Positions 2,912 through 29,766 of a stretch of DNA of 64,000 bases are shown here, one piece after another; positions within the stretch are counted from its first letter, which is position 1; every line of letters begins with the position of its first letter. The position numbers and the translations under genes are program-made. The stretch is taken from the NCBI GenBank assembly GCA_947179485.1, contig OX359246.1, positions 5,270,001 through 5,334,000 of the forward strand, written 5' to 3'. The notes below the pieces were generated by a model that saw only the letters and a program-made list of their open reading frames with translations, was not told where the DNA came from and did no database searches. Origin of the DNA: Allacma fusca (lineage: Eukaryota > Arthropoda > Collembola > Symphypleona > Sminthuridae).

Positions 2912-2932
2912 AATCTGCGAACAAATCACCAG
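2912..2932 (-). CDS. Micro-exon (21 bp) of the minus-strand micro-exon gene
   Basis: The minus strand shows a long T-rich acceptor (attgtatttgcag), 21 exonic bases and a perfect donor (gtaagtaat). The gene's phase gives G-D-L-F-A-D with split codons at both ends. Phase +1 contains TGA. The length is divisible by three and the junction with exon 3810-3827 encodes Thr. This is the most downstream exon I am confident of. Confidence 0.8.
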
Positions 2933-3809
2933 CTGCAAATACAATTTAAAAAATTTTATATTAGGAATCAAGGGCACGCATAAATTTGACCTGAATAAAT
3001 ACTATAGTTTAACCCATACACTAGTATTCTGGAAGTGTCAATATCCTAAGACAAATAGAAAGACATCCCTTTCTCAGCTAAATTGACTGACTTGATTTTT
3101 ATTTTTATAAGAGCTGTAAATGAATGTCTCATACAAATCCATGTATTTTTAATTCCATAAGAAATGTGAGCCAACTAGACGGCTTCATCTAGTACTTGTA
3201 GCGAAGTACATTTCAGTATAATGGTTGCCTGTATAGGTATTTGTATTTAAGAGGCCGTTTGTACAGGGCACCAAAAAGCGTTTGAATTACTCCTAATCTA
3301 AATAAAATTGCGTAATAAAATCTTTTCCATTTCATATTATATTTGAAATTTTCTTCATATATCTTATCATATATCTTATCTTCTTCTCATAAATTATTTT
3401 CAGAATGCGTTCTTTCTCGCTGGATCAAGATTTTTTTGAAAACTTCTGAAAACTGGTTTATCAAAATTTGGTTTACATAAATTTAGCATGCAGAATTTTA
3501 GCGGTTGAAAGGTGGCCTTTTAATAAGTGGTTGCCAAGAAGTTAGCCGAGATTTAAATAGCTCGAGTTTAATTCTTTTTTAAATACTATTGTACCCTAAT
3601 TAAACTAGTTAAATCCAGATTTTGAAAACTTTTAACCCCACAAAAACGTTATCAGACTAAATCAACAGCAACATCAATAATAATATTGTTTTAACCTAGT
3701 CTTTTCTGAAATTCAAATAATTATGTTTAATATAACTCAAGCAGATCGTTGAAATTATTCTTGTTATATGCTCTTAAAGCTTAAATTCAAAGATGAAAAA
3801 TTCACTTAC
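2933..3809. other. Intron sequence, nothing else recognised
   Basis: AT-rich sequence between two micro-exons with no long ORF, inverted repeat or element boundary that I can see. Confidence 0.5.
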
Positions 3810-3827
3810 TCGATCCTTCAAAGTTGG
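3810..3827 (-). CDS. Micro-exon (18 bp) of the minus-strand micro-exon gene
   Basis: Acceptor aaatcttttttacag and donor gtaagtgaa bracket 18 bases on the minus strand. The shared phase reads N-F-E-G-S with split codons at both ends. One alternative phase contains TGA. The junction with the upstream exon (6782-6799) makes an Ala codon. Confidence 0.85.
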
Positions 3828-4224
3828 CTGTAAAAAAGATTTATTATTATGTAGAAGCTTTTCCTAGGAAGTCATGTTACATAATTATATAAGTATATAT
3901 AAGTATATACATATGTAAGTACGTGCGGATGGAAGTGACGTAAAATATTTGATTCTCCTAATTTGTTGGTTAAAAAACGTGAAGCAAAGTCAGGGTTTTT
4001 TATTAAAAATTTGTGGGCTTTTCTGGGAGCTAACTGATAGGATTTAATGTTCTTCTTTTTATAAGGAAGAACAAACCGTGATAGAATCATTTAAAATCAT
4101 TGGGCTTGTAGCCAATTTTATTGGGATTCAACAGCATCGAATAATTATTAACAACCAATCTACCAAATTGGGGCTACCGCATCCAAAAATATAAGGAAAC
4201 GTTATGAATTATTTCTAACTATTT

Positions 4225-5430
4225 CAGTGGTCGTCATGGGTACAAAAAGTTTGTTCCCGTTCCTGTTCCCACTCAATTGGTACTCCCCGTAAGTGTTCCC
4301 GTACCCGGACCCGTTCCCGTTATGATGGGAACAGTATTTTAGGTACCCGTTCCCATGAATTTATTAAAAATACGTACCCGGACCTGTTCCTGTTCCCGTA
4401 CCCAGATTTTAAAATTTTTTGGACCCGTACCCGTTCCCACAGCTAGTGTTCCCGGTCCCGTTTCCGGGTGCAAGTACCTTGTACTTAAGTGTGGTAAAAT
4501 TATCTTGTAGTTTCCGTAACCACCAAATCCTTCGTGTCAAAGATAAAAAACAGGCAATATGCAGGGCGGCTAAACGCTCCCCCATAGCGAAACGTAACGG
4601 CGTAATAACTGATTGTTTAATACTTCAGAGATTATGTACCGAGTAGACCGAATATCAACACATTAAAATGTTATACTGGGAAAGGATGCAATAATGAATG
4701 GAGTATTGATGATGCTCTTCAAATAATAAAATTGCATGCTGATGAGAGTTCCAAAATGGCACTTAATATTTAAGATCAATTACTGACTCAAAGATAATTA
4801 TTCTGCATTTAAAATATAGGTATCTGAAAAATATAAGCCAGCGCCAGCACCGATCAGTTTACCTTTGTTAGCTTTATTTAAAACCAAAACATTAACTCGA
4901 GCAATCAATTTTTCAAGGGTAAAACTTCCAGTAAAAGTATAAACTAATATTAATTAGTATTTTAATATTTATTAGATTAACTTGTAGAAATATTCTTTAA
5001 AATACCGCAACTGTACTGAAACACTAGTTCTAACATTATTATCTTTAAGGCAAGTGCCTAGAAATTGCAGGAAAAAAGAATGGAATGGAATATGCAAATT
5101 GATTTGTCTACATAAATAAAGTCTTCAAAGATTAATTTTGAGTGCGTTTCTAGAAGATGGTAAAAGTACCCCCTCGGTCCCGGGAACAACAGGTATGGGA
5201 ACGGGATAATGCGTAGACTGTACCCGTTCCTGATGGGAACGGGAACAAAATGAAAATCTCGGTTCCTGTTCCCACTCCTGTTCCTGTTCCCGGTGGCCGG
5301 GTTCACTTGAGTTTGTTCCTGTTCCAGTACCCAAACTGGTTGGGAACAAAATACTTGTTCCCGTACCCGTTCCTGTACCCGTTCCCGTTCCCATGTACCC
5401 TTCTTTTATCCGTTCCCGTGACGACCACTG
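4225..5430. mobile_element. hAT MITE, GTTCCC/GTACCC arms, copy 1, perfect TSD
   Basis: TIR CAGTGGTCGTCATGGGTAC on the left pairs with CCCGTGACGACCACTG on the right. The 8-bp target duplication aactattt is perfect (4217-4224 and 5431-5438). The arms are degenerate GTTCCC/GTACCC repeats and the interior is unique. An inverted second copy lies at 19007-20451 and shares both TIR and interior (around the word GGGCGGCTAAACGCTCCCCC). Confidence 0.92.
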
Positions 5431-5438
5431 AACTATTT

Positions 5439-6781
5439 CGAAAGGTTGTCGTCGGAAATAAATGTTTTCGCTTTATTTAATGTTCGATTTTTATTTTCGA
5501 TAATTCCAAAATTTTGAAGAGTGGCCGAATGTTAGACTGTTAGAACGTATACATAAGTGAATTCCAAATAAAAGTCAATACAGGCACAGTGCTTTGAAAT
5601 CTTTCAAAATTGTCATATCCTCCATGATAAAATAGCAACAACAGAAAGTCCTCGAGCATATACCCTCCGTGCTCATAAATTATGCTCATTAATAATAAAT
5701 TCTCTAATATTGCTCCTTGTCTCTTCCAGATATGCCCATAATCCTTCAGCATGGAATTCTATTGAATAGATAGCTCCCTTGGAAAGCATACAAACGTTAA
5801 TGGAGGCAAGCGTCGAAACATATTTTGACAAGTTTCATCAGTTACTGAGCCTACTGAATACGATAGAGTTGAAAAGCTTAGTACGAAAGAGACTTAAAAT
5901 AAATCCCGTTGTATGGCATTGGCAAGCTATTTAAAAGGATTTATTGCAAGAAATTGATTGTATAAATTAAAAAAACAATCAAATTATTCTTGAAACAAGT
6001 TTTGACATTAGCCTTTATAATATATAATTATTATAACTCAGCTGATCCACCGACCTTTTTGCCAAGAAAACGTTGTGCCCAGGACATGGTACACAAATTG
6101 TATTTTCCTGACTTATGTAACTTATTTTATTTCCCTACAAAAGCATTTCTCTTTAAGGGCCTTTTTCTCTGGGATTATTGCAGGATCTTATAGAGATTAA
6201 ATTGTACACTGCATTTGATAATTGAAATTAAGAATTATCTAGATAATTATTATAGCATGTATACATACATGTTTTTGATTTGTTCTCCAGGATCTCAGAA
6301 TGCTTTAAAATTTTGTAGAAAATATTGTTTTCTTATTTTGGCGTCGTTCTCGGCCTTCAGAATCGGAAGATGATTGACGTTGCATAACGGTTTGCTCCCT
6401 GAAAGAAGTCAACTTACCGCTCTCTTCGTTTGTACGAAAGCAAAAGCGACTCAAGTACTTTCGAGGCAGCAAAATGTTTTCGGGAAATTAGAGCGACATG
6501 TAAACTCTCCTTGCGTAAATTCTTGTTAACTCCTCGGAGCTCACTTGAGATTTAACGTCGATCAACTTCTGATTTAGAAAACTCTCAACGAACCTGCTAA
6601 CAAATTGTGTGGTGGTATTTGCTTTCATCTCCAGCAAAAATTTTGTAGAAAAAATATCTTCTAGAATTGTATAGCATATATATTTTATAGGCATAGCATT
6701 AGCATACTAACCTAGGAAGGAAAGGTTGTTGATTACCCTGTATATCTTAAACTATACAAAATCAATAATATTTTTACTTAC
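5439..6781. other. Intron sequence with an uncertain minus-strand ORF (6488-6694)
   Basis: Mostly AT-rich. A minus-strand ORF at 6488-6694 (68 codons, ending RRVYMSL-stop) looks coding-like, but it has no recognisable domain and no matching splice phase. A donor-like cttac at 6409-6414 has no suitable acceptor nearby. I assign no function. Confidence 0.3.
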
Positions 6782-6799
6782 CGACATCCTTCGCGTGTT
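6782..6799 (-). CDS. Micro-exon (18 bp) of the minus-strand micro-exon gene
   Basis: Minus-strand acceptor taatgtttgtttcag and donor gtaagtaaaaa flank 18 bases. The shared phase reads H-A-K-D-V. It joins to exon 10741-10755 through a Gln codon and to exon 3810-3827 through an Ala codon. Splice signals are among the best in the series. Confidence 0.85.
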
Positions 6800-7568
6800 C
6801 TGAAACAAACATTAACTATTATTAGACCATACTGATATGGAGTTTAGAATGATTTGATTCAAATGCCTTAAAATATGGCGCGTAGATGTAAAACTTTATG
6901 AGTGTATTAATACTGATATATTTATATTCCAAACTTAAGACAAGTATTCCCTTGTGAGAAAAATACCACCCGTTACAACACTGCATTAAAAGTATTTGTA
7001 CTACTGTCAATGAAAAACAGTCATATTTTCAAGATACATTGCTGAACAAGCAGCGGGCAAATTTAGTAGAAGGGGAAAACAAAAATTAAATTTACAACAT
7101 CTGGATTTTGATCTGGTCTATTTCCAATCCGAGATTTGCTATTAATAACACACTTCACTTGCAAGTCAGGATTCGTACAAAAATGTAATTATTTCAAGAT
7201 GAAAGGGTCATTTCCAGATTAATGAACAAACAAACATTTGAAGTTCAAAATTAAAAATTATACAAAAAAAAAATATTATCTGTAACATCAAAAACAATAT
7301 TAATCATGAGAAGGCAATTTATGATCCATGTATTCCTTACATCGATACAAATGGACCATACATTGAATCTAGGGGAAGTGTTTCAAACTTTTTGTCATTT
7401 ATGAAACAGTTTAGGTTGCCAACAAAAAAGAAGGGACACCGCTGTCCAACAAAAATGAAAATTTCTTCCATATCTGATGAACTGTCTTTGACTTCCGGAT
7501 ACTTATCAAAACAACTTTAGAAATATATGGTAATTTCGAAATCATTAACATGCAGAGCTGCTCAAAAT
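6800..7568. other. Intron sequence, nothing else recognised
   Basis: No gene is seen. A 28-bp segment at about 7341-7368 has splice-like flanks, but its length is not divisible by three, so it was not accepted. Confidence 0.4.
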
Positions 7569-8527
7569 ACATGCGTTCAACGTAAGTGGTTCTAATGTTC
7601 AAATACTAACCACTATTATTAACCAATTGTATCTCGGCCTCATGTTGACCAATATTTATCACAGCTGCCTTCTTGACCTTAGATTGGCCAATATTGGTCA
7701 CTGCTGGTTTCTTATCCTCAGATTCATTAATATTTATCACAGATACCTCCTTGACTTCAGAGTTATCAATATTTCTCACAGCTGCCTTGTTGACCTCAGA
7801 TTTAAGAATATTTAACTCGTTTCTTGGCAACAGATTGGCTAAATTATTTGATTCCCCCAGTTTTTGGAAAATTACACAGCAACCTGTGTTATACCTCGCT
7901 GGAATTCCCATAACATGTCATACAGACAATTACTACAATTGCCATCAAAACAATTTATGAAAAAGCTTTCTGCATGTATCCATAATTTAGGCATTGAAAT
8001 ACTGGAACAAATCACTTTGCTTGGGTTTGCATGGGTTTCGTGACCCAACGACCAAGAAGTCATCTGTGTCGAAAACGGACAAATCTGAGGTAAATACATA
8101 AATAATTGAAACAAATTTTGGCCAATCTCAGGCCAAGGTACCATCTACCCATTGTAACCAATATTGATCAATCTTAGACGAAGAAACTAATTGTGAACAA
8201 TATTGGTCAGCCTGGGGTCAATAAACTAATTGTTGCCAATATTGATCAATCTGGGGCCAACAAAATAATTGTAACCAATATTGGTCAATATAAGGTAAAG
8301 AAGGAGCTGTGATAAATATTAAAAAATCTGAGATCAAGAAGGGAGCAGTGATCAATATTAGTCAATTTGAGGCCAAGAAGGTAACTGTGGCAATTATTGA
8401 TTAATCTGAGGTCAAGAAACCAGCACTACCAGCAGTGATCAAATTTGGTCACTTGAGGCTGGGAAACCATTGGTTACTAATATTGACTAGTATTTGAACC
8501 TTAGAACCACTTATGATGAACGCATGT
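7569..8527. mobile_element. Foldback element with inverted arms of 39-bp tandem repeats
   Basis: Ends are inverted: ACATGCGTTCAACGTAAGTG on the left against the reverse complement of CTTATGATGAACGCATGT on the right. The left arm (about 7640-7810) holds four units of a 39-bp repeat containing CCAATATTGGTCA and TTCTTGACCTCAGATT. The right arm (about 8150-8480) holds eight or so degenerate units in opposite orientation. On the minus strand of the left arm the unit reads as a 13-codon repeat (N-I-G-Q-S-x-V-K-K-A-A-V-x). No target duplication is visible. Confidence 0.75.
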
Positions 8528-8753
8528 CATAAATGCGTCATTCGTCTAATATAGCACCGATTTTCGAAAACGAAAATCTCTTATGGGATTCAACGTTGAA
8601 AAATTTCAATTGGACAGGGACCATGTGCCGATGAGTTAGAATTTAAAACGTTTGCGCTATTTCGCGGGTAAACCAGGGCGAGATGGCCCAAACTTTTGAT
8701 CTCGCTGGGACATTGGGTCAGGTACCTAAGCTCACATACAATTTCATTCCGAT

Positions 8754-9736
8754 TAGTGTTTCCTGTCAATTGCAAGTTAACCGCAATTACTAATTGAACT
8801 TGCAAGTTCGGTTCAATTGCAGTTATTTTACACCTGGGAATTGTAATTGTCGGTGCAAGTGCAATTTCTGTGCACTTAAATTGCAATTACAAAAGCATTA
8901 AATACTCGCAGTTATCGGTCAAGCACACCTGAAATTGCAAGAGAATCAATTGCAATTACAAGTGCTTGCACTGCAAAAAGTTGCAATTTAAAAAAATACT
9001 TATCAAGTTAATTGCAACTTGCTACCGTTTTGAATTTGAGCGCAAAATTTCACAAAATGCCTCAATAAGTCATTCCGCTGTAATAACTAATGCACATAAA
9101 ATAATCACGAGTATTGTCTCAACAAGTGTAATTACTGTACTGGCTACAATTTGATCTGTGAGGAGGCAAATTGTTCTAACTGAATTTTTGATTAGCATCA
9201 AAATGTTCCCAATTGCACAAAATTATAGAAAAATAGGCCAAATATTTTAAGGATTGTAAAGATATGTCGAAGGATGCAATTTTACAATATTTTAGCCTTG
9301 GAAGGCTTAAAGAAAGGCTATTTCATTTGTACATCTCTGTTTCATTATGCATTCCATGTAGGTCATTTGATTTAATACACTTTGTTCAATTTAGTGAAAC
9401 AGCATGTATATCATCTTGCTACCAATAAAAAATGCACAGAACATTTTGCCTCTTCGCCGACGATTTATATTGTATATCAGTTAACTTGCAATTACAAATT
9501 GCAATTGCACTTGAAATTGTACTTATCGGTGCAATTACATCCACATGATTTTGCAATTGCCTTACCAACTGCAAGTAAATTGTCAACTAATTGCAAGTTC
9601 AACTTCGGTTATTTGCGCGATTTAATTGCCGCATTTTAGCAAGTACCAGTTATGGCATTACTGGTACTTGCATTATCAATTACAATTGTAATTGCAAGTT
9701 CGATTATTCCCAATACTTGCACCGACAGAAACACTA
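8754..9736. mobile_element. hAT-like MITE, TTGCAATTGCAAGT arms
   Basis: Termini TAGTGTTTCCTGTC and GACAGAAACACTA are inverted. The flanks carry attccgat on the left (8746-8753) and atttccgat on the right (9738-9746), a target duplication with a one-base change in length. Arms are TTGCAA/CAAGT words. The terminal TAGTGTTTC is shared with the element at 57265-59038, whose arms are entirely different. Confidence 0.8.
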
Positions 9737-9746
9737 AATTTCCGAT

Positions 9747-10468
9747 TGGGCATGTGGCAAGGGTTACTTTGTAAGCATGAAATATACTTATTGTAAACGC
9801 TGTATACATAAAAATAACCTTAAAACTCCTTCCGAGAAACAACAGGGCGTCTCCAAACAATCTAGTTCAATATACTTACATAGGTGTTAACCTATGATTA
9901 GAAGAACTAATTGCAATTGAATCAGAATAATTATTGTGACAAATTTTAATCGAGACAAAATATACGTTGGGATTATATACAAGTATTATCGGACATAAAA
10001 TATACTTATAAGTAAATTAAAAACCTAGCGGAAAACTATACTACCGAATTAAAGAATATATAAATAACAAATATTGTAATAAACAGTTTAATACCTTCGG
10101 ATTATTGTAATATATACTGTCGTAAAGATGATATTGATTTTGTCAATATACACTCATAGTGTATTAATTTCAGTGATTCATTCAAAATTAAATGCGAGTT
10201 AACATTTTCAAAGTGAGATGACAAAGTCTGTCATCAGCTCCGTAATGTTTGGCCGGGTGTGAGATTATTGAATATTACACGCACATGTCTTTGAATGCAA
10301 CCTGTAATTAGCTAGAAAATCTGCTTTTAAATGCGTATTGGGTAAGGTACAAAGTTACAGTTAACAGCTTTAGTGTTCCAGCTTTATCCATTACTTACAT
10401 TGTTTGCAAACATTTCTTTGTTGTCCAAGTAAAAACTTTTTCTACATTAAAAATTGGATGCATATATA
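9747..10468. other. AT-rich intron sequence
   Basis: No gene or repeat boundary recognised. Two exon-like segments here (9880-9891 and 10274-10306) were tested and rejected on phase. Confidence 0.4.
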
Positions 10469-10712
10469 AAGGGTGCCAAGAAACTGTAGCTCCACACACA
10501 ATCCACATAAGGGGTTGCTAAAAACAATGTTCCTTTTTGATTTGGCAGATCCTTTCAAAATATGTTTCATTCCAAGAGAGCACATATGCCGGAATTAAGT
10601 TAGTTTGTGGCCATGTTTTCGTGAAATATTCGCTAAATCATTAGGGAATTAAATGTTTTTTTAGTTGTTCCTTTTGTGAGCAAGTTGGGAGTAATCGTAC
10701 CTTGGCACCCTG
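10469..10712. mobile_element. Short Tc1/mariner-like MITE with TA duplication
   Basis: Inverted ends AAGGGTGCCAAG and CTTGGCACCCTG bracket about 244 bp, and TA dinucleotides sit directly outside both ends (10467-10468 and 10713-10714). The family assignment rests on the TIR and TA only. Confidence 0.55.
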
Positions 10713-10740
10713 TAGTTACAATACATTCTTTGCTACTTAC

Positions 10741-10755
10741 GTGAAAACTCTGGAT
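10741..10755 (-). CDS. Micro-exon (15 bp) of the minus-strand micro-exon gene
   Basis: Minus-strand acceptor catgttttttcag and donor gtaagtagc flank 15 bases reading P-E-F-S in the shared phase. It forms a tight cluster with the exons at 10890 and 11028 (introns of 134 and 123 bp), which suggests the ancestral intron size before transposons expanded other introns. Confidence 0.87.
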
Positions 10756-10889
10756 CTGAAAAAACATGAGTAAAACCATCATTAAATTCTAAATTTGAAC
10801 AAATCTTCTCACAAATTTACTACATATAACTTTAAGTACGTTAGATAATGGAATCAACCACATATTAGAAATACTGAATAATTACTTAC

Positions 10890-10904
10890 TCTTTTGGATC
10901 TCGT
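10890..10904 (-). CDS. Micro-exon (15 bp) of the minus-strand micro-exon gene
   Basis: Acceptor gcgtttatagttatag and donor gtaagtaat flank 15 bases reading E-I-Q-K in the shared phase. Junction codons are Asp with the upstream exon and Asn with the downstream one. Confidence 0.82.
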
Positions 10905-11027
10905 CTATAACTATAAACGCACGTGCATACATACAAGAAAACATATCAAACACTTTCACTTTTTTTGTAAATAATATGACAATATTCTATGCTATTAATC
11001 GTTTATTGTAATTGAAAATTGTTTTAC

Positions 11028-11042
11028 CTGCTTGACTGTTAA
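11028..11042 (-). CDS. Micro-exon (15 bp) of the minus-strand micro-exon gene
   Basis: Acceptor ctctcttacatgtacgacag and a weaker donor, CAG|gtaaaac, flank 15 bases reading N-S-Q-A. Another phase has TAA at its first codon. Spacing to the next exon is 123 bp. Confidence 0.75.
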
Positions 11043-11769
11043 CTGTCGTACATGTAAGAGAGAAAATAATATCGTTTAGCGGTAATTTAAATCACAATCA
11101 CCTAAAAATATACTAGCAGGCGAGGAAACGGCGACGATTCTTAAACAATAAACACTAGTCGAATTTTGTTAATATTATAGTATATTAATACATGTAAAAT
11201 ATATGCATACTGAATATATGCATGTATCTTTAGATTATTACATTTTGCATTATTTAAATGTATAAATTAACTTTATTTTATTTAGTTTATACATAATTAT
11301 ATACGCTCTAAAAATACTTAGATAGTAGATATATTTATTAATGTAAACTGCATTAGTAAATTACTAATAGTAATACATATCCCTACTATATAGTATACTC
11401 AGGTACGTATGTGTGCATTTATGTCCGTCCGACCGTCCTATTATGGTCTTTGTTTTAACAAATAATTATTACGTTATCATTTTAACGAAACGAAATACCG
11501 TGTATTGCCAGTTAAATACAAGAAATAATTGCGTAATTATTCGTCCCCCAATTTATCTATTTATTAGGGATTTCCCGTCCTACTAATTTTGCGTTTTAAT
11601 TCAGGTCGATTTTCCCTATCCTTTATTTCACCCATTTACTTCGGGACTATTCCGTCCACCTTCTTTTACTTATTAATTTGGGTGTATTCTCGCCGTATTA
11701 TTACTATTCTGTTAGGGGTATTTCCTGTCCTCTTTCGTCGTGCTAAACTATGTATAAACTAAAACAATG
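11043..11769. other. AT-rich intron sequence
   Basis: No gene recognised. Confidence 0.4.
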
Positions 11770-11777
11770 AACTGGAC

Positions 11778-12505: not shown

Positions 12506-12551
12506 AACTGGACAATCAAACAAACTAAAGTTCTAACTTGAAATTGGTTAC

Positions 12552-12572
12552 AACTTTTAATTAAAATTAATT
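12552..12572 (-). CDS. Candidate micro-exon (21 bp) of the micro-exon gene
   Basis: A very good acceptor (cgacttttttacag) and an acceptable donor (gtaaccaa) flank 21 bases on the minus strand. In the shared phase it reads L-I-L-I-K-S with sense junctions (Glu with 13583-13609, Phe with 11028-11042). The sequence is AT-rich and low in complexity, so chance is possible. Confidence 0.4.
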
Positions 12573-13582: not shown

Positions 13583-13609
13583 CTAATCCAAGTCGAGTCA
13601 TTGGCCCAT
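13583..13609 (-). CDS. Micro-exon (27 bp) of the minus-strand micro-exon gene
   Basis: Acceptor ctaatgtttttaacag and donor gtaagtttaat flank 27 bases. The shared phase reads G-P-M-T-R-L-G-L, and phase 0 contains TGA. The junction with exon 18104-18142 encodes Tyr. Confidence 0.85.
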
Positions 13610-14059: not shown

Positions 14060-15785
14060 CAGTGCTCGGACTGGGTACAGAAACCGTGTACCCGTACCCA
14101 TACCCGTACCCGAATATCGGGTACTACAAAATGCTGTACCTATACCCGTACCCATACCCGAGTACCCGGGTAAATTATTTCAGTACCCGTACCCGTACCT
14201 GAAAATACAATGTAGTACCTGTACCCACAATTTACCCGTACCCGTAATGTTCCCAAAACCTGTACCCGTACCCGAGTATCTATTGTGTGTACCCGGGTAT
14301 TACTCGGGTACTGAAAATTTGGCTGATTTAAAATCCTCGACGACATTAGCCTGCCCAGCTGAAAAATTTTAATTTGTCAATTTTTTGACCTTCATTAAAA
14401 GTGTCCGGGATTTTGGGAATTTTACCTAGGCGTTAAAAACATCCTATTTGAATTTTTTGAAAAAATTATTTAAGGCATATTTTGGGATTTTTTTAATAAA
14501 CACTGACGAAATTTAAATCCTACTACCCCAAAATAATAACTTGCTGAATGAAATGAAATGTGTTCTCGCTAATTGGAATTGGGACGGATTCTTTAATACT
14601 AAACTCTTCGTAACTTGCTTTTCAACTTGGAGAACAAGAAACAATTTTTTCCCGGTTAAGCGAACTCTGTGTATAGAAAATGTTATACCGAAAAATTGAG
14701 TTGATCATAATTTTGGAAGTCAAATATTGCGGTTTCAGGAAATAAATGTGGGAGGCAATATTGAATATTCATTTTATATTACAGCTTTATAAAACAAACC
14801 TAAAAAAAGTAAACTGTCTCTCAAATTTATGAAGCCCGAGACGGAGATTTTCGAAAAATGCAGGCAAAATAGGACTAAAATGCAACCCCATGGAAGTTTT
14901 GAACGCCAAGTTCAGACGTCTGTCAAGTTCTTTTAACATCAAAATTATCAAGATTAATCAAAGGGACTGAAATATAAATATTGCGTGCAAGGAATGATAT
15001 TTTTCATTCTAAAATGTTATAAATATTCACCTCAATAAATACTCAAAGTGTAATAAATACCTAGAATTGAAAATGCTCAAATTGCCTGCATAAAATGCCT
15101 TGGCGTTTTCAAATGGGCAACCCTGCGTACTTGTAACGTTAAGAAATGGATCTGCTAATAAATTTATATTTATTCCGATCTTATCTCGTAATACGTCTTC
15201 AAATAATTGTAATGTTACGCTCCCAATGAAGCTAATTAAATTGAATCCCAAGAACTTCCCTCTTGAAATTCTTCGTTGATGAGCTTCACTATTTGAGTCG
15301 ATAAACACATGATTTCACTGACTCTACACTCTATTTCTTTATTAGATTCCTTGGATGAATTATTAGAAGCGTTAGATTGCAACTACCACGTAATCATAAA
15401 TGAGACGAAGCCACTTGGCTCTGCCACTAACGCAAGTATCTGTATACTACGAAATAAGCAACTCCACGGTTGGTAGGTCTTATTGTTAGCCATAATAATC
15501 CATCCCATCAGGAATCCTTGAAGTACCCAAAAATACTCGGGTACAGCACCCACGGGTACAGGCATTTTACAAAGTGATACCCGTACCCATTGGGTACTAC
15601 CCGATTGCCACTGAGTGAGTACCCATACCCGTACCCGTACCTGTACCCACTTTATTGCCTAAAATCAAGAGTACCCGGGTAGAACCCGCGTACTTGCGAG
15701 TACGCAACTTCTGTACCCGGGTAGTACCCATACCTGTACCCGTACCCATTTACCCGAGTATTACCCGTACCCAGTCCGAGCACTG
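14060..15785. mobile_element. hAT MITE, GTACCC arms, perfect TSD
   Basis: TIR CAGTGCTCGGACTGGGTAC on the left is matched by GTACCCAGTCCGAGCACTG on the right, a perfect 19-bp inverted repeat. The duplication gttcttat is perfect (14052-14059 and 15786-15793). Both arms are GTACCC/GGGTAC words. The 1.2-kb interior is AT-rich and noncoding, so the element is non-autonomous and recent. Confidence 0.95.
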
Positions 15786-17799: not shown

Positions 17800-18050
17800 G
17801 TTTCTTAACGGTATCGGTTACGGTATCGGAGTGGGACTTTACCAGTACAACGAAAATGTTCCGTTTGCACTACCGGGAAAGAAATGTGAAAACTGAAACA
17901 GATCCAAAAAAATTGGAGCATAATCGGTTTGGGTTTCGGTACCGAAAATGAAACCGGTAATTTAGTACCGATCGGGAGTCTGACAAGCTAAATTTCCCGA
18001 AACCGAAGTGTTCGTACCGATAGTCCCGAAAACGGAACATAGCCTGGCGG
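17800..18050. repeat. Degenerate GGTATCGG/ACCGAAACCGG repeat block
   Basis: Dense GGTATCGG, GGTACCGAAA and CCCGAAACCG words, the same style as the MITE arms. It begins TTAACGGTATCGG, and the block at 18525 begins TTAACGGTACCG. A micro-exon lies between the two blocks, so I read them as two separate short elements. Exact ends and target duplications were not found. Confidence 0.5.
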
Positions 18051-18103
18051 AAGCAATGTGCAGAAAATACGAAACCAGAATGTACACGGTCCTAATTACT
18101 TAC

Positions 18104-19006: not shown

Positions 19007-20451
19007 AAGTGGTCGTCACGGGAATAGGTAACACTCGGGTACATGGGAATGAGTACAGGTGCGGGTACGGGAACAAGTATTTTGTTCCCAACCAGTTTGG
19101 GTACGGGAACAGGAACACACTTAAGTGGACCCGACCACGGGGAACAGGAACCGAGATTTTCATTTTGTTTTCATTTGTTGTTTCATTTTCCCCGTTCCAA
19201 TCGAGAACGGTAGTCTACGCATGGTCTCGTTCCCATTTTTGTTGTTCCCGGGATCGAGTGGGTACTTTTACCCAGGGGTCGCATTTTTGTAGGAAGACGG
19301 GAAGAATCTTCCCAGGGAAAAAGTATTTCTGGCAGGGAAAATCTCGAAGGGAAGGGATTTATTTTTACGAACAGGGATTTTTAAGATCGTTGACCTTTTC
19401 TTGGCAGGGATTACAGGGATTTTTGAAATCGTTGAGGACCTACCAGCAGGGAGATAATAGTCAGCAGGGAAATTCAGAACTAATCTTCCAGGGAGATTTA
19501 AAAAAATCCGACCCCTGCTTTTACCATCTACTGGAAACGCAATCAAAATTGATCTTAGAAAACTTGTTAGTACTTTATGTATGTAGACAACTCAATTTGC
19601 ATATTCCATTCCATTCTTTTTTCCTGCAATTTCTACACACATATCCTGGTCTTAAAGATAATAATGCTAGAACTCGTGTTCGGTAAAACTTAGAATATTT
19701 CTACAAGCTATTGCAATAAACATTAAAACAATTATTTTTAGTTTATATTTTTTCCTTAAGTTTTGTCCTTGAAAAATTGATTACTCGAGTTATTATTATG
19801 TTTTTAAATAAAATTAACAAAGGGAAACGAGTCCATGCTGGCGCTGGCATACATTTTTAATATTTATTTTATATGCAGAATAATATCTTTGTGCCAGCAA
19901 CTGATCTCAAATATTAAGTACCATTTTGAAACCAACATGCAATTTTATTATTGGAAGAGCATCATCAATACTCGAATCATTATTGCATCCTTTCGCAGTA
20001 TGACATTTTAAAGTGTTGATATTCGGTGTATTCGGGAAATAATCTCTGACGAATTTAAATCAGTTATTACGCCGTTACGTTTTGCTATGGGGGAGCGTTT
20101 AGCCGCCCTGCATATTGCCTGTTTTTTATCTTTGAAACGAAGGGTTTGGTGGTTACGGAAACTATAAGATATTAATTTTTACTACAGTTAAGTACAAGGT
20201 ACTTGTACCCGGAAACGGGAATGGGAACACTAGCTGTGGGAACGGGTACGGGTCCAAAAAATTTTAAAATCTGGGTACGGGAACAGGAACAGGTCCGGGT
20301 ACGTATTTTTAATAAATTCATGGGAACGGGTACCTAAAATACTGTTCCCATCATAACGGGAACGGGTCCGGGTACGGGAACACTTACGGGGAGTACCCAT
20401 TGAGTGGGAACAGGAACGGGAACAAACTTTTTGTACCCATGACGACCGTTG
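19007..20451. mobile_element. hAT MITE, GGGAAC/GGGTAC arms, copy 2 (inverted relative to 4225)
   Basis: Left end AAGTGGTCGTCACGGG and right end CCCATGACGACCGTTG are slightly mutated versions of the CAGTGGTCGTCA TIR. Flanks tgcgcaac (18999-19006) and tgtgcaac (20452-20459) match at 7 of 8. The interior is the reverse complement of copy 1, including the word GGGGGAGCGTTTAGCCGCCC. The 234-codon ORF from 18982 follows from arm periodicity and is not a gene. Confidence 0.9.
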
Positions 20452-20459
20452 TGTGCAAC

Positions 20460-21229: not shown

Positions 21230-21256
21230 TCAGTTGCGGGAACCATCTGATTATAT
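21230..21256 (-). CDS. Micro-exon (27 bp) of the minus-strand micro-exon gene
   Basis: Acceptor acaaattaaatttttgcag and donor gtaagttga flank 27 bases. The shared phase reads I-I-R-W-F-P-Q-L, and phase 0 has TAA. It lies 165 bp from the next exon upstream. Confidence 0.88.
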
Positions 21257-21421
21257 CTGCAAAAATTTAATTTGTTGTGTAATTTGGTTTATCCTAATTT
21301 AATTTGCTTGGAAAAATAACTATTTACTACTAAAAATATTAAAATAGCACGCAATATGTTGTATCGGTTTTTATAATTGTCAATACAAGTCAAAACGTGA
21401 ACAAGGCAATTGATGTCTTAC

Positions 21422-21442
21422 CCACAAAGGTTACTAATGCTT
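21422..21442 (-). CDS. Micro-exon (21 bp) of the minus-strand micro-exon gene
   Basis: Acceptor caaattttttattgcag and donor gtaagacatc flank 21 bases. The shared phase reads A-L-V-T-F-V, and phase 0 has TAG. Junction codons are Lys upstream and Asp downstream. Confidence 0.87.
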
Positions 21443-22186
21443 CTGCAATAAAAAATTTGTTAATGTTTTATTAAAACGATTCGATGAAAAATACTAAGAG
21501 ACTACGAAATTTGATATTTACATTACGTTATACCGGAATAAATTAAAACGCAGCACAAAAATATCTGCCTTTTCCGGAATCAGACAATCATTATTTTATT
21601 TTGTATCGGCAAAAAATTAAAAATACCATCTTGTTAACACCAGTTTAAATCAGATGTTAAATGTTTGCACGCCATTTAGAATTTGATCTATTTCTGTAAA
21701 AATCTTAGCACGCAAAAACAAAACATATTTTTGAAACCACGAACTCTACTTTCAAGACAAATTATAATGATCAAATTGTTACATATTGTAACTATGCTTG
21801 ATCTCGTTTGTGTACGAGTTCCATTGGAAACGAAAAAAGTGTAAAATATTATAATATCGTGTGAATTTGGTTTGAAACAAATCCCTGCGAAGTGAAATAA
21901 TTTGTTTGTGGACACCTCAACCTACTGAACCATGTTACATCCAATTTAGAGTCTATCAATTTACGTGAACATTTGTGCTTAAATTTAGCTGTACAGCAGT
22001 GATCAGGAGGGTTGATTGTGGAAATATAATCGCGATGTTATGTGCTTAAACTGTAGAAAATCCGGAAACAGGAGTATTGCACCATGTGCTCTGACGATAA
22101 AGATGTAGTTGGAGTTGGTAATAATTAATAATGATTATCTTAAAATGATTTTCATCATATTATATAACGAAATTTCAAATTCTTAC
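21443..22186. other. Intron sequence, nothing recognised
   Basis: AT-rich. The minus-strand 75-codon ORF at 21688-21915 has no domain signal or splice support. Confidence 0.4.
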
Positions 22187-22204
22187 TTTCATCTCGGTCT
22201 GGAA
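22187..22204 (-). CDS. Micro-exon (18 bp) of the minus-strand micro-exon gene
   Basis: Acceptor gtcccttttttatag and donor gtaagaattt flank 18 bases. The shared phase reads P-D-R-D-E, and phase +1 ends in TGA. It joins exon 25537-25557 through a Phe codon and exon 21422-21442 through a Lys codon. Confidence 0.85.
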
Positions 22205-22549
22205 CTATAAAAAAGGGACACAACCATACTTTTATTAGAACCAAACATACAGAGGCTGTCAAATAATTAAGCTCGGAGAGAAATTATATCAAAATCAAAT
22301 GCACTGAAGGTCAATTATCTGCAGTTAATTTACTGTTACCATCCTTAATATAATCCGAATTTGGTACTTCAATTGCAGAAAAATAATAATGACTCAGTAA
22401 CATTGGTTTAATAATGTCACCAGTTTAGCCAAATTACAGAGGGTGGTTCTATTTTTAACACTTTTCTCATTAGGTTATCCTTTGTTATGCAAATCAATAA
22501 AATCGCTATAAAATGATTCAAATCAAAAGGCGGTATTTACCGGCTTTGC

Positions 22550-23560
22550 AATGAGCTACCGTTCTTTCCAATCGCCCAACCCAAACTTAAGAAACTCACT
22601 ACGGAGGTTTTCGGGTTTTCATAGGCTGGATTACGCTCACGGGTGATACGTAAAAAACTGAAAGCCCACTTTGTGACCATTTTTTACGTCTAAGTGAAAA
22701 ACATTTATGGTTTTTAAGCGTCATGGTTAGGCGTAAGGACTTCCATCGCCGAAGAAACAAATTTAGTTTACGGTAGGCCAGGTTTATGACCTCGTAAGAG
22801 AACCAACGCTCACAAAAAGATATGGCAATCCACGCAGAAATGTTAAGGACCACCATGCAGCGTAATATTAAAACGCCGAGGAAGGAAATCGGTCACAAAT
22901 GTAGAGTGGATAAGCTGACTCCAAGCCATACGACGAACCGGATGTGAACTTTCCCGAAATTCTATGAGCGCTATCTAGGCGGTGAAAATTCGGAGATTAT
23001 AGTTTTATTCCACGGGGCAATATGGGTAGTACGACGTCAGAGGGGCAAGAGCAAGATCTGTTAAGTAGAGCGCGCTAAAAAACGTAGTTCGTGGATACAT
23101 ACAACTTTGTGAAGACCTTCATGGCGGTGCAGGTAAATAGTAGCAGGGGGGAAATACCAAGGTTAACGTTAAATATTATATTGGCCACATTTTGAAGGTC
23201 ATGGTTTAGACTCATCTCCCCCGTCTCTACGGCAATGAAATCTCGGAGGTTACCATTAACCATTATGCCGCTAACTTACATACCACCCGAATGAATCAAG
23301 CCTACGCTGAAACCGTGCAGGCCACAGTGGGTTTAAATATCATCCGTAATAGTGAAATCCCTGTTAAATCGCCCAATGGGAGCTTTATGGACGTCTTCGG
23401 ATTTGGACACTTAAAACAGCGTGTCAACCGACGGGGAAAACCAATATGGGTATTTGGAAGGTCTTTCAACAGGAGTGGAGAGATGTGGACCAGTCTCTGG
23501 TTAACAGGGTGTACTATTCTTGAAAATTGTGGCTGAGGCTAGTAGCCAGTAAAGGTGGCA
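22550..23560. other. GC-richer segment, possibly a decayed coding region
   Basis: About 1 kb is visibly less AT-rich than its surroundings. It contains broken open stretches on both strands (minus 22599-22856, plus 23291-23536 with P-V-K-S-P-N-G-S-F-M-D-V and R-R-G-K-P-I-W-V-F-G-R-S). I do not recognise the product. It may be an old mobile-element gene or a host relic. Confidence 0.3.
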
Positions 23561-25536
23561 AGCACATCAAGCAGACTAAATCTATCCACCATAAGTGCAA
23601 ATTATGAAATTTTCACATAGAAGTGTTAAAAATAGAACGTTTAACCCTCTGTGAATGCCAGAGAATTCTCTAGGTAACGGTAAATATGAATATGCAGGAA
23701 TTTTATTATATAAACTGGCCATTAAAGGCTCATCAAAACGTAATCTGAAGTAGTGTACATAACATGTACATACATGTGTACATACTGGACGCATAATGTC
23801 ACATGATAATCATTTAATTATACGGTGTCAAACGTATTTCAAAATCCTCTGCCACGTCGAATTTACGTTTCATTTGGAAAACCTTGACCACAAATTATAA
23901 AAGGGATCATGGAAGGAAACCGTAGAATAATAATCTACGATTGCATCAAATATTGTCTTTCAAAGAGTAACATTTTCATATATATATTTCATATACATGC
24001 TTGCCTGAGTCCCTTACTTGGACCATGGTGACACATGGTTTCTATCTCAAACGGCATATTGAAAAGAAATTATAAACCACCAGTCCATATGTTTCACACG
24101 ACCGGGTAAACAACCACAATTTCAACATTTTCTGCTTTAAACAAACAGTTCGTCACATTGAGAAAATAGCCAATCAGATTATCTTTGAAAGACAATGTTG
24201 ATTACAGCGTCATTAAAAATATAGTTTGACATTAAATAGTAAAATTTAAGGGTTTTACGACAAGATATGGACCCTTTCAAGTTGGAAAAATGCTTCATTT
24301 TCCAATTTTGTAATACAATTAAAGAGGCAGATACACGGAAATACATCCCATAATGTTAACCCAATATTTAACAAATTTTACTTTCTTTTATAGTTCAACA
24401 TTATTTTAAAATCCACTGCCCAATTGCGGCTAATATTTTCAGTAAAATTGGCCCGGCTGTGTTTTCTATTTCTGGGTAATTTAACTGTGGTAACGTTTAT
24501 TACTTCATAGTGTATACTAAAAACTTGTGGAATCGTCCAAAATTTGAAATGATTAAAATCCCTGAATTATTCACGCTACTCACATTCTAAGAAGCTGTTA
24601 ACCTACGCGCCATTTATTTTTATTTAAAAATAAATGGCAGATAATAAATTTATGTACAGTAAAAAATGTGTACCCGTAGGCTTGGATTTTTAATGATGCC
24701 TAAATTAAAATGTTACATGACTACACTAATTCGATATACTAGATGCAGGATTGGTGCTTGTTATATGGAAATGCCAAGAAAATATTGAAAAAACCGGGCC
24801 TTGTTTACTTTTGTAAGTGCAATGTTTACGTAAGTTCCGAAAATTGAAAATGACTAGTAAAAAATGTACAACGAAAATTTCTACCAAAAATAATGGTTCA
24901 CTAGTACAATTTCGGATTATCTAATTTCATAGCAAGCGGCGGTTATGAATTATTTCAAAACTTGGAAATGTATGGAATATTTTGTCTACTTTGAAAACTG
25001 TATTTCACTAGCCCAATAAAACAAGGAATCGCAGGCGTCAAAAAATAGTGGCAATGCAAAAAAACGTTTTTTGCTAATAGCAAACTTGGAAAACCAAACA
25101 AGTTGCTCCTGTCCGTTTTTGTGCTGTATTTTTGCATGATAATGTTTTTTTGCAAAGTCCAATAATTATATGATGCGTACAAACGAATTTTTGCTACAAA
25201 GTAAAATTTTAAAATTATTAAAGTTGGCAGTGGCAACTTGCAACATACTGTTTTCGAATTTAGTATACAAAAAATACGTTGCTACAACTACAAAACAGAA
25301 AAAAAGTAACTACAAAAATAGTAAATATGCTAAATGCTTGATCTAGCCTGAATATGTCTAAAGTGCCATAAATGCCTAAACTGCCATAAAATGAAAAAGA
25401 CGAAAATGCAGTGCCATAATCAAGTGTACAATCCTGATCACATATCATATTGTTGCATTAGACTAATTATTACTACATACATTCGCTGATAAACATACAT
25501 ACATGTTCCATTAAAAATTTAAAGTTTTGTACTTAC
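23561..25536. other. Intron sequence, nothing recognised
   Basis: AT-rich. A 24-bp splice-flanked segment at 24018-24041 was tested and rejected because it would create a stop at the junction. Confidence 0.4.
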
Positions 25537-25557
25537 AATACGATTCGGAGGTTTCCG
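25537..25557 (-). CDS. Micro-exon (21 bp) of the minus-strand micro-exon gene
   Basis: Acceptor attcaaacattacag and donor gtaagtacaaa flank 21 bases reading E-T-S-E-S-Y in the shared phase. Junctions encode Pro upstream (28848-28862) and Phe downstream (22187-22204). Confidence 0.86.
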
Positions 25558-25914
25558 CTGTAATGTTTGAATACAATATTAAAACACCAGAAATATTTAA
25601 ACATTAATACGTGCTAAGTAACTAAAAAACGAAGCACCTCTGTGCGGCATAACGGGTTAAGCAGTAAGTAATTATATATACACATAACTATAAATTCCCT
25701 AAAACATTTATATACAAGTCAATTTTCTATATAAATAATATATAGAAGCATCTCCATACATATATTAGCAGTAATGTAATTCCTTGGGAACCACTATACA
25801 GGAAATTCACTGTGCATCGCTAACCATTGGTCATTAACATACAATATACATAGGATCGCATTAAAAGGTTTGTGGGTAAACTCACCTACATATGTATGTA
25901 CATATACATATTTA

Positions 25915-25976
25915 TTTACACTATTGACGCTTTGTAGTATACATTTCGGTATAGTATACAGCGTCAATAGTGTAAA
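25915..25976. other. 62-bp near-perfect hairpin
   Basis: Arms TTTACACTATTGACGCT (25915-25931) and AGCGTCAATAGTGTAAA (25960-25976) pair over 17 bp. A further GTATAC/GTATAC pairing follows after a 5-nt bulge, leaving an 11-nt loop. It is followed by a TA run and a second CAGCGTATAC fragment. It could be a tiny MITE or an intronic pre-miRNA-like stem. Confidence 0.6.
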
Positions 25977-28847
25977 AAAAGATATATATATATATATACA
26001 GCGTATACTATGCTTATGACCATTAAATAATTCAATTTCCCGCGTATAAATGTCTGGAAATGTCATAAATTCATAACTGAAAAGCAGGTTTCTGTACGTA
26101 TATTTGTATTTGCGTGTGTTTATACGTGACCTCATTTAATTTTTCTGAGGTCCAGCGGAAGATCCGAAGTCCTTGAAAAACAATACACCTAGACATACAC
26201 AATAGACTTTAAGCTTCCGTCCACCGGTAAATATATATATATATCAGGTACGTGTAATATGTCGATGAGGAAGTAAAATATGTAATGAGCACGTAGCCCA
26301 ACTGGTCCACACGTAGTTTTAGTCAAAGTAAAACAACCTAATTGCATGAACCTCCTGCAGTGTAACTAGACCATTTTTTTAATGTCAGCTCAAAAAAGAA
26401 TTTACCCTCAATGCTGGACATGGTTATACATGTATACGTATCCGTACCGAATGTTCAGGTATTTATAAACCTGAAACCTTTGTATGTACCCAGTGGCTCA
26501 ACCACTAGGGGCGCAGGGGTACGCTGTACCCCCCGTCACCACAGATTTTACTCCCCAGAAAAGAATTGATTTAACATAGATGACAGAAATGTCATACGCA
26601 CTAATAAACCGGAAACTGCAGATGGAGCTAACGTTGAACCAAATCCAGAATTTTTTTATTCTGGCAAATATAAAAAAAAAACTTGAAGATCCATCGGGGG
26701 TAAAATTTCCAATTTACCCAAATTGCAATGTCGAATTAGGGTATACTGTTTATTTGAATGCGTATCTATAGTAACCTAATTATTTCCACGGAAATTACCT
26801 GAAATCATGGATTGCATATATTATGTGCAATTAAACTTTATATAACAGTCCCTACACAGCGGATGTTAAAATGCAAAAAAAGTAAAATCTTAACACATCA
26901 AAATTTTAACGAATTCACTTTTGATTTACGATTAGTCACAATTACAATTAATTTTCTTGGCGACGTTTCGACCATGGGTCATCTTGGCACTGTATTGAAA
27001 GTTATGAGTGACTTTTACCGTGATCACTAATGATACTGATAGTGATGACAGGACTTAGTAAGGAAGTTTATAGTATGCCTAATACGATGGTTTTGAGACA
27101 ATATATCTGCCTTGTGGTGATCAATATCTATAATTAGTTTAAACAAAATTTTGTATTTAAACCCGATTCAAATTTTGAGTTGAATATAAATGTGCTACAA
27201 TTCTCTGATTTTTCAGTTGGGCGAAGTAAGGAGCGGAAATTTTAGTGTCGTCAAAAGAGTGGTTCGGGGACTGGAAATGTAAATTTGCTAAAGGAGTTAT
27301 TAACAGGTGGTTTTCTAACACAATTATGACGTTTCCTAAATCTGCCTGGCTGTTTGTTGTCAAACAAATAATATTGGGGCAATGCTAGCAGGTAATTGCA
27401 CAAATTACATGCTCGGAAGTACATTTGGCCGGTGGATTTATTTCCGTAGTCAAACTTGTATACGTGGTAGTTTAATAATCGGTCATAATGGATTAAGAAT
27501 ATAAAAGAAGCCTACTCTTTTAAAAGAAGATTGGGTCATCCATTTGTAAGTTTCCCTCCGTTTTAATTCGACAATAATATTTTATTTATTACACGATTAT
27601 TACAACGAAAATTAAATGAATAGAAGATTTCATTCCGCCGAATATATTGTAATTATTATTAATTATTATTATTTAGAATAATTGCAACTAAACAAAATTA
27701 ACTGGTACTTGAAAAGGATATTGGAAATCTGGTACGGTACAAGTAAGCGTTCTAGGACGGGTCAGTCCAGTTATTTTTAACTTGAAAATTCGGGTACGAG
27801 TACGCCGTCAATGAACATTAGAAGTATTTGTTCCCGTAAGCAGAGTATCGGATTTTCGTACTCATACTTGAAGTAGTAAGTCCGAAACTTATTCCAGTTT
27901 TATCCGAAAATTCGAGTATGGATCCGATTCAAGTTCGCTATCAAAAATTATTCAATATGTGCGGAGCTCTAGGCAGAAACATTGCTCCAGAAAACATTAG
28001 GGATGTGCAGTATATATAAGTGTAGCACAGGTTTTATAAATTATCCGCTATTGAATTAAAATACAATAATATATCTTTGAACTTGATCGTTTTAAAACTT
28101 TTAGACGATTACTTATCAAAACAGTGTTCAATTTAATAAACGTTCCAGATATTATCTAGAGAATCATATTATGTTATAATACGTTTGGAGGAAAATAAAC
28201 TCCTGCTCGCTATAATGCCAAATTTTAACCCCATTATAACATATTATTACACAAAACGTTTCCGCCCCAAACACAAAAAAAGAATCAACTGATAAAATAT
28301 TCGGTTCCGGAAAAATTCGGGGCAAGGGTAGAAATAAAACGCAAATTGTTCTCTCTGAAGAAAATATTTTGAAACATTAAATAAACTTGCTTCAAAATTA
28401 TTTGATCCTGCAGCCTCGATGCTTGACTAGGAATGTTCATATTGGACAAATGAATCCCAATGTATATCGTTACAAACCCATTGGTTCGAATTTTTTCCCC
28501 TGGACAGATTCGCCATTAAAAATTATGCCGATCAGAGATATTCTACCATCTTCCGGTCTTCCTCCGTTTCACCCTTAATTTGTCTCAATCTTCGTGTCTT
28601 TGGTTAAAGTTCATAACAACAATTCTCATGGAAGAGACCTATCAAATAGCTCAGAGAGCATACAATTTACTACCCACATGCGTTTAAGGATATCCATGAA
28701 GAAATTTTATTAAGGAATAAGTACCGTTTTGTGACATCATGCATATAATTAGAGTAAAATCTTCAAAGCATTTTTGAATTTCAGCGGTCTATTTACCATT
28801 TATGCTTGCTTTACACATGTAATGATTCTGTAGTAAAATATACTCAC
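25977..28847. other. Intron sequence with small repeat remnants
   Basis: Contains TA microsatellites (about 25982 and 26230) and a probable hAT-end remnant near 26491 (CAGTGGCTCAACCACTAGGGG) without a matched partner. A degenerate GTACGAGT/CGGGTACGAGTACG block lies at about 27710-27930 in the style of the MITE arms. No gene is recognised. Confidence 0.4.
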
Positions 28848-28862
28848 GTTTATTCAAGTGCT
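28848..28862 (-). CDS. Micro-exon (15 bp) of the minus-strand micro-exon gene
   Basis: Acceptor tgtttaatttacag and donor gtgagtata flank 15 bases. The shared phase H-L-N-K is the only open phase: the other two contain TGA and TAA. This is strong support for phase-1 introns throughout. Confidence 0.87.
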
Positions 28863-29226
28863 CTGTAAATTAAACAAACATTCGATCATTTGTAATCAAT
28901 TTCAAATGCACTCATGTGTGAATTCAAAGCTCGTGAAAGTATTATCTGGAATATTAATTTCCTGCTCGTTTTCTGTAGTATCAAAAATACCTCAATGCAG
29001 TAAATAAACTAGACGCATCCCAATGGGAAGCATTGGAACGAGACAAATAGTAAATATATTGTAGATACTATAGTCACTTTAAAACACTTTAAACTCAAAA
29101 TAATAATTTGTGGGTAAAGAAGCAATTTTGATATATCTAACGATTATACGATAACGAATGTATCGATTTTATAGTGTCATAGTTAATAAAAAGTATAAAA
29201 AATGTTAGAAGTTAACAACAACTCAC

Positions 29227-29238
29227 CTTTAACTGACT
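29227..29238 (-). CDS. Micro-exon (12 bp) of the minus-strand micro-exon gene
   Basis: Acceptor ttgcttactttccag and donor AAG|gtgagttgt flank only 12 bases reading S-V-K in the shared phase. Both junction codons are Glu. It is the smallest exon I consider reliable. Confidence 0.8.
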
Positions 29239-29745
29239 CTGGAAAGTAAGCAAAATATATATACACATTAAAATCAATACACTAATAAAAAGCACTAACA
29301 AATAAAACAAGTTTAACAAAATATTTTTGTCAAAGTTTGTCTTCATGATAATTTCAATTCACGACTTCAATCACGTCCATCTCCATACATACATATAAGC
29401 ATTTATTAATTTCCATCAAAAATGATTAAAGTCAATAAATTACGTCAATAAAGATTTCAAACCTTTAAATAATTGCATAAAATAAATTGTACAAACATAA
29501 TTTTAGAATTCAAATATTATTATGAAGGCTCAAATCGTAACTAGTTGGGGAGATAACTAAACTTTTCAGCTGTATAAATATCTTCCTACAACTAGTGTCT
29601 TATAATCATTATGACAGCTGCAAATGAAAGCAAGTTTTAAGCACTACTAACAATACTCAGGATTTATGTACGAATACCAAAAGGGCAGGGTATCTGTGGG
29701 TTAAATAAGGCAAAATAATTTTTGTTAAAACCAAAAATCTCATAC

Positions 29746-29766
29746 CTACATCTGTGGATTTGAATT
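29746..29766 (-). CDS. Micro-exon (21 bp) of the minus-strand micro-exon gene
   Basis: Acceptor cgtttttatttgcag and donor gtatgagat flank 21 bases. The shared phase reads F-K-S-T-D-V, and phase 0 ends in TAG. It is the most upstream exon of the uninterrupted core series. Confidence 0.82.
   Translation of the reverse strand, partial: NSNPQM

What the first reader, a model, noticed from the sequence alone, without database searches (positions are those of the whole stretch)
2912..29766. Symmetric micro-exon gene on the minus strand
Fifteen segments of 12-39 bp, each with a good acceptor and donor, all have lengths divisible by three. All are open in the one shared phase, and several have that phase as the only open one or one of two. 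All 14 junction codons are sense. Extra candidates extend the series up to 56-61 kb. This is the architecture of aphid/coccid bicycle effector genes and schistosome MEGs. The product is unrecognised and would be invisible to ORF-based annotation.
Basis: partly seen in the sequence, partly recalled or inferred. Interest (0 to 1): 0.92.

Follow-up and report, generated by a model that had tools for sequence, protein, structure and literature searches.

The report
Springtail micro-exon secreted-protein gene pair
A springtail chromosome carries two neighbouring genes, each built from 17 small coding pieces, most of which differ more between the two copies than the DNA beside them, a layout otherwise known from aphid gall proteins and blood-fluke secretions.

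Summary
The genome's total, four of its six chromosome lengths and its mitochondrion fit Allacma fusca, a globular springtail, so it is no aphid, coccid or schistosome. Over 13 micro-exons the copies are 50% identical, in nearby intron 76%. The published bicycle-gene classifier scores both above 0.999, but there is no CYC motif, no significant Pfam match and no PDB match for the one product searched. Best reading: a small secreted, fast-diverging protein with bicycle-type gene structure. Function is inferred; no RNA was examined.

The parts
37192..37271 (-). exon 1, coding part: ATG, hydrophobic leader (signal-peptide-like), 26 codons + 2 nt, donor gtaagtca
   Evidence: paralogue ATG at 86545 (window coordinates) has a similar leader, the same donor and the same remainder; first 66 nt 56/66 identical
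35253..35290 (-). exon 2, 38 nt (32 in the paralogue), enters in phase 1 and leaves in phase 2
   Evidence: conserved AG/GT, phase 1 the only phase open in both copies
29746..29766 (-). micro-exon 3, 21 nt, phase 2
   Evidence: conserved AG/GT, 21 nt in the paralogue
29227..29238 (-). micro-exon 4, 12 nt, phase 2
   Evidence: leave-one-out expectation 0.013 per 27 kb; conserved
28848..28862 (-). micro-exon 5, 15 nt, phase 2 the only phase open in both copies
   Evidence: leave-one-out 0.087; conserved
25537..25557 (-). micro-exon 6, 21 nt; 18 nt in the paralogue (one codon less)
   Evidence: conserved AG/GT; weak alone, leave-one-out 0.5
25249..25287 (-). candidate extra exon, 39 nt, phase 2 only; undecided
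   Evidence: good sites, expectation 0.075, but no match in the paralogue
22187..22198 (-). micro-exon 7, 12 nt, phase 2; a second acceptor 6 nt upstream is also conserved (18 nt)
21422..21442 (-). micro-exon 8, 21 nt, phase 2
21230..21256 (-). micro-exon 9, 27 nt, phase 2
   Evidence: conserved AG/GT and length; weak alone
13583..13609 (-). micro-exon 10, 27 nt, phase 2 the only phase open in both copies
   Evidence: weak alone
10741..10755 (-). micro-exon 11, 15 nt, phase 2
   Evidence: weak alone
6782..6799 (-). micro-exon 12, 18 nt, phase 2
3810..3827 (-). micro-exon 13, 18 nt, phase 2
2912..2932 (-). micro-exon 14, 21 nt, phase 2. Exons 15-17 lie outside the window at -708..-688, -931..-914 (a second conserved acceptor at -922) and -4199..-4183 (chromosome position = 5,270,000 + window position)
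   Evidence: leave-one-out expectation 0.000; conserved
60116..60132 (-). last coding exon of the tandem paralogue, in-frame stop; the paralogue's other 16 exons lie beyond the window, up to 86545
   Evidence: both copies stop at the same codon of this exon in phase 2

Best explanation
This is an intact 17-exon gene of the springtail Allacma fusca (chromosome 2, about 5,265,801-5,307,271, minus strand) with a tandem paralogue at about 5,330,116-5,356,545. Exon 1 encodes a signal-peptide-like leader. Fourteen phase-2 micro-exons of 12-27 nt encode most of a small acidic mature protein of about 12.3-12.5 kDa, and the last exon adds four codons and a stop. Shown by sequence comparison: exon borders, phases, frame and stop are kept in both copies while micro-exon sequence is not. 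Inferred: the product is secreted; it belongs to the fast-changing secreted proteins that meet another organism or a mate (gland secretion, defence or mating); because nearly every internal exon is a whole number of codons in one phase, single exons can be changed, lost or skipped without breaking the frame. My confidence is about 0.95 for the gene structure, 0.85 for secretion and 0.35 for the conflict role.
For: Chain not matched in 4,831 simulations. All 15 internal exon pairs keep AG and GT and an open frame in both copies. Both copies give one open frame, 402 and 399 nt, all junction codons sense, stop at the same codon of the last exon. Leader 16/22 residues identical, the rest 30 of 112 aligned columns. 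Over 13 of the 14 micro-exons (those of equal length) 123/246 nt identical; intron +7..+26 197/260, donor +1..+6 73/78, acceptor -8..-1 97/104. Pfam at E up to 1: no family for the gene-1 product, one match at E 0.15 (below its cut-off) for the paralogue's. No PDB match for the paralogue's product; gene 1's was not searched.
Against: No RNA evidence. Secretion rests on a hydrophobicity scan, not a signal-peptide predictor. pN/pS over 69 codons is 0.81 (bootstrap 0.59-1.15), so dN/dS above 1 is not shown; synonymous sites are also far apart, and exons were located through alignable flanks, which favours conserved flanks. Only two family members were found, with searches of limited sensitivity. 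Five of the twelve in-window micro-exons are weak on splice score alone.
Confidence: 0.85

Rival explanations
1. It is a true homologue of bicycle genes, descended from a gene older than the split of springtails and insects.
For: 17 exons, small, 14 of 15 internal exons in phase 2, leader in exon 1; the published classifier gives 0.9999 for both copies; non-aphid bicycle homologues also lack obvious CYC motifs (PMC9168663).
Against: No CYC motif in either product. The source paper detected none in Psylloidea, Aleyrodoidea or Fulgoroidea. The classifier was trained in one aphid. Intron concordance and fold were not tested.
Confidence: 0.2
2. The series is chance: AG and GT are common in AT-rich DNA and a reader will find chains.
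For: Loose thresholds do give chains in several phases; two of the 15 rebuilt segments are false.
Against: 0 of 4,831 simulations; collinear paralogue with kept splice sites, leader and stop.
Confidence: 0.02
3. An ordinary conserved gene that happens to have many micro-exons (muscle or neuronal type).
For: Micro-exons occur in conserved genes of many animals (general knowledge; several listings).
Against: No significant Pfam match for either product and no PDB match for the one searched; mature parts of the tandem copies only 30 of 112 columns identical.
Confidence: 0.04
4. A dying or dead duplicate.
For: Repeats and transposon copies in the introns of gene 1.
Against: Both copies are open from ATG to stop with AG/GT intact.
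Confidence: 0.04

Closest known systems
bicycle genes of aphids, phylloxerids and coccids (PMC9168663, passages and one section)
   Same: Many very small internal exons, almost all phase 2, about 17 exons, divergent proteins; classifier score above 0.999
   Different: Springtail host; no CYC motif; only two copies found; expression and fold unknown
schistosome micro-exon genes (MEGs; PMC4671649, passages)
   Same: Leader in the 5' exon, central, mostly symmetric micro-exons, small product
   Different: Flatworm genes flanked by two long exons; here the last coding exon has 17 coding nt and almost all internal exons share phase 2
Hessian fly SSSGP genes (PMC2955719, abstract)
   Same: Leader and non-coding parts more conserved than the mature coding part, tandem copies
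   Different: The Hessian fly effector gene described in the passages I saw has two exons (PMC4071006), no micro-exons; positive selection is reported there, not shown here

Membership tests
bicycle genes | internal exons small and almost all phase 2 | tested here: met
   14 of 15 internal exons phase 2, mean length 20.3 and 19.7 nt
bicycle genes | many exons (average about 17, minimum 5) | tested here: met
   17 in both copies
bicycle genes | score above 0.72 in the published gene-structure classifier | tested here: met
   0.99992 and 0.99997 with the printed coefficients, on predicted gene models
bicycle genes | CYC motifs | tested here: not met
   no C-Y-C in either product; no obvious CYC reported in non-aphid homologues either
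bicycle genes | host in Aphidomorpha or Coccoidea | tested here: not met
   Allacma fusca, Collembola
bicycle genes | shared intron positions with H. cornu bicycle genes | not tested
   no bicycle sequences were fetched
bicycle genes | saposin-like fold (PMC13041983, abstract) | not testable with these tools
bicycle genes | salivary-gland expression | not testable with these tools
   no RNA data
schistosome MEGs | leader in 5' exon, mostly symmetric micro-exons under 36 bp | tested here: met
   14 of 15 internal exons symmetric, 12-27 nt; leader in exon 1 by hydrophobicity
schistosome MEGs | flatworm gene flanked by long 5' and 3' exons | tested here: not met
   springtail host; last coding exon 17 coding nt, UTR length unknown

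The most novel reading that the evidence does not exclude
Phase-2 micro-exon genes for fast-evolving secreted proteins are a hexapod-wide class, older than the split of springtails and insects (or invented again in springtails), missed because no exon is long enough to annotate; bicycle effectors would then be one plant-feeding branch of it.
Probability: 0.25. Interest if true: 0.93.

Novelty: new variant of a known kind. Interest (0 to 1): 0.8.

Why it matters
Bicycle-type structure was reported from aphids, phylloxerids and coccids and not detected in three other groups tested (PMC9168663). A complete gene pair with that structure in a wingless, free-living non-insect hexapod (general knowledge) means either a much older origin or a repeated invention, and makes the question why such proteins use one-phase micro-exons testable outside plant parasites. 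It also shows that two tandem paralogues can identify exons far too short for normal annotation.

Tried and rejected
Exon candidates dropped: 8929-8970 (its surroundings recur as an 88% repeat about 31 kb below the window), 17843-17869 (no match in the paralogue; leave-one-out expectation 17), a last exon at 1194-1207 (strong acceptor, but AG not kept in the paralogue), a first exon at 29750-29801 (junction with the next exon gives a stop), and 35701-35739 and 55701-55745 (expectations 17 and 1.9 under the fitted weights).

Host by transposon: the Penelope-like ORF's nearest named relatives are two sciarid flies (58% over 197 aa, 51% over 202 aa; that they are sciarids is recalled), and for a while I took the host for a fly. 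The assembly lengths overruled that. My reading of mitochondrial COX1 as springtail-like was from recall; the identification rests on the genome total, four of six chromosome lengths and the mitochondrion. TTAGG repeats in ten fetched contig ends were 0; some ends are rDNA or masked, so this says nothing. Rfam and tRNA scans of the window: 0. Pfam on 20 window ORFs: only the Penelope RT and GIY-YIG domains reached their cut-offs; one ORF (15030-15314) gave Emr1 at E 5e-5, below its cut-off, not followed. Literature: ten searches. For Collembola with microexon or micro-exon, 119 papers held two of the three terms; none of the 15 listed holds the word Collembola, the other 104 were not seen, so I claim no absence from print.

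Full report
Is it there? I scored acceptors and donors with general weights from recall, not fitted to this sequence. In 2912-29766 the minus strand has 15 segments of 12-39 nt at score 6 or more, 13 with length divisible by three, overlapping variants included; the plus strand has none, and order-2 Markov sequence gives 1.8 symmetric segments on average. Without overlaps and with slightly different weights the counts are 12, of which 10 symmetric and 9 open in phase 2, against 2 and 1 on plus. The longest phase-2 chain in 2.8-30 kb was 11, 9 and 8 exons at three thresholds; 4,831 order-3 Markov sequences, taking the best of both strands and all phases, never reached these (maxima 9, 6, 4). 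25.3 kb of the rest of the window, with the duplicated transposon block left out, gave minus-strand chains of at most 3, 1 and 1. Against this, over the whole 64 kb at the loosest thresholds a phase-0 chain is longer than the phase-2 one, and five of the exons later confirmed are weak on splice score alone.

Where is it? The genome search placed the window at G000:C8:5,270,001-5,334,000 in a 392.74-Mb assembly. Contig lengths 81,893,619, 75,608,127, 55,591,601 and 48,059,808 and a 14,936-base mitochondrial contig (GC 0.286 over the 12.5 kb read) agree with the published table of Allacma fusca qeAllFusc8.1: 81.9, 75.61, 55.59 and 48.07 Mb, total 392.8 Mb, mitochondrion 14.94 kb, GC 28.5% (PMC10427803, passages; abstract start). 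The other two chromosomes (66.08 and 58.81 Mb) were not compared. The paper counts 95 scaffolds, the held copy 91 contigs. Allacma fusca is a globular springtail (Collembola, Symphypleona).

The paralogue. A query with window 2880-4000 matched, besides itself, a place 2.3 kb beyond the window around exon 2912-2932 (76%) and a 40-base piece on another chromosome. With 80 kb fetched above and 40 kb below the window, 13 of 16 tested segments with 70-nt flanks found a collinear match on the minus strand at 66-79 kb. Alignment shows the AG and GT kept at 12 of them. The 13th (1194-1207) does not keep its AG. 8929-8970 lies in a repeat, and 17843-17869 and 25249-25287 have no partner. Blocks of similarity run from about 41.4 to -4.3 kb in gene 1 and 87.2 to 60.0 kb in gene 2.

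The complete gene. Scanning the aligned blocks for conserved splice sites added exon 2 (38/32 nt, open only in phase 1 in both copies, so that it leaves in phase 2), two more phase-2 micro-exons at -688..-708 and -914..-931, and a last exon whose phase-2 frame stops in both copies. Upstream, both copies have an ATG followed by a hydrophobic leader and a gtaagtca donor with the same remainder of two bases (all three remainders were scanned), which is the phase exon 2 needs. The two 17-exon models are open from ATG to stop, 402 and 399 nt, all junction codons sense. Two earlier guesses at end exons had failed (29750-29801 and 1194-1207). All 15 internal pairs keep AG, GT and an open frame. Two exons have a second conserved acceptor (22204 and -922), so their exact starts are not certain.

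How it changes. Over 13 equal-length phase-2 micro-exons (of 14) 123 of 246 nt are identical between copies, against 197 of 260 in intron +7..+26, 73 of 78 in the donor hexamer, 97 of 104 in the acceptor octamer and 56 of 66 in the leader. In 69 whole codons 50 differ in amino acid, 7 differ synonymously and 12 are the same. pN is 0.474 and pS 0.582, so pN/pS is 0.81 (0.59-1.15): micro-exons diverge faster than the aligned intron next to them, but dN/dS above 1 is not shown. Exons were found through alignable flanks, which biases flanks upward. The products share 16 of 22 leader residues and 30 of 112 other columns; taken from residue 23 the mature parts are acidic (pI 4.6 and 5.5), 12.5 and 12.3 kDa, with one and two cysteines. 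Pfam gives nothing for one product and one sub-threshold match (E 0.15) for the other; no solved structure matches the paralogue's product. In the own genome the DNA search with 28740-29900 found only the paralogue besides itself; the promoter and exon-1 search found the paralogue and otherwise only a dispersed repeat (40 of 160 candidates scored); a protein search found only the two leader exons. More divergent relatives may exist.

Comparison with known kinds. In bicycle genes almost all internal exons are phase 2, with about 17 exons on average; a linear classifier with printed coefficients has a cut-off of 0.72 (PMC9168663, passages and one section). Both springtail copies score above 0.999. 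They lack CYC motifs and the host lies outside the groups where such genes were reported, so I do not file them as bicycle genes; they are built like them. Schistosome MEGs share the leader exon and mostly symmetric micro-exons (26 of 33 in MEGs 26-32; PMC4671649, passages). The pattern of conserved leader and non-coding parts with variable mature coding parts is reported for Hessian fly salivary genes (PMC2955719, abstract).

Mechanism. Shown by comparison: exon borders, phase, frame, leader and stop are maintained while micro-exon content changes. Inferred: secretion, and a role in a conflict with another organism or a mate. One-phase symmetric exons let single exons be altered, lost or skipped without frame damage; exon 25537-25557 is one codon shorter in the paralogue, and 25249-25287 may be an exon of one copy only. 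Which tissue and partner are involved cannot be told from DNA.

Noticed in passing
37945-40560 (+): Open Penelope-like reading frame (871 aa stop to stop, RT and GIY-YIG). Its nearest named relatives are two sciarid flies (58% and 51% identity over about 200 aa); in a tree of 37 chosen rows they and four unnamed sequences form a 100/100 clade with it, inside a larger set that holds rows from the springtail Folsomia. The host is a springtail: possible horizontal transfer, or contamination.
   Followed up: partly
41476-53507: About 2.1 head-to-tail copies of a 4,197-bp element with two reading frames (458 and 657 aa; no Pfam family at E 0.001 here, though relatives of the second carry PF28514 and PF26215) between two 1.63-kb direct repeats 99.94% identical.
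   Followed up: partly
4229-5429 and 19008-20447: Two inverted copies of one GTACCC/GTTCCC-rich element, 87% identical over 959 nt and 79% over 276 nt, in introns of gene 1.
   Followed up: no
7569-8527: Inverted-repeat element whose arms contain 39-bp tandem repeats, in an intron of gene 1.
   Followed up: no
37614-37806: Dispersed repeat of about 190 bp just upstream of exon 1 of both copies, with at least 38 further copies genome-wide.
   Followed up: no
15030-15314 (-): 95-aa reading frame with a Pfam Emr1 match at E 5e-5, just below the family's cut-off.
   Followed up: no
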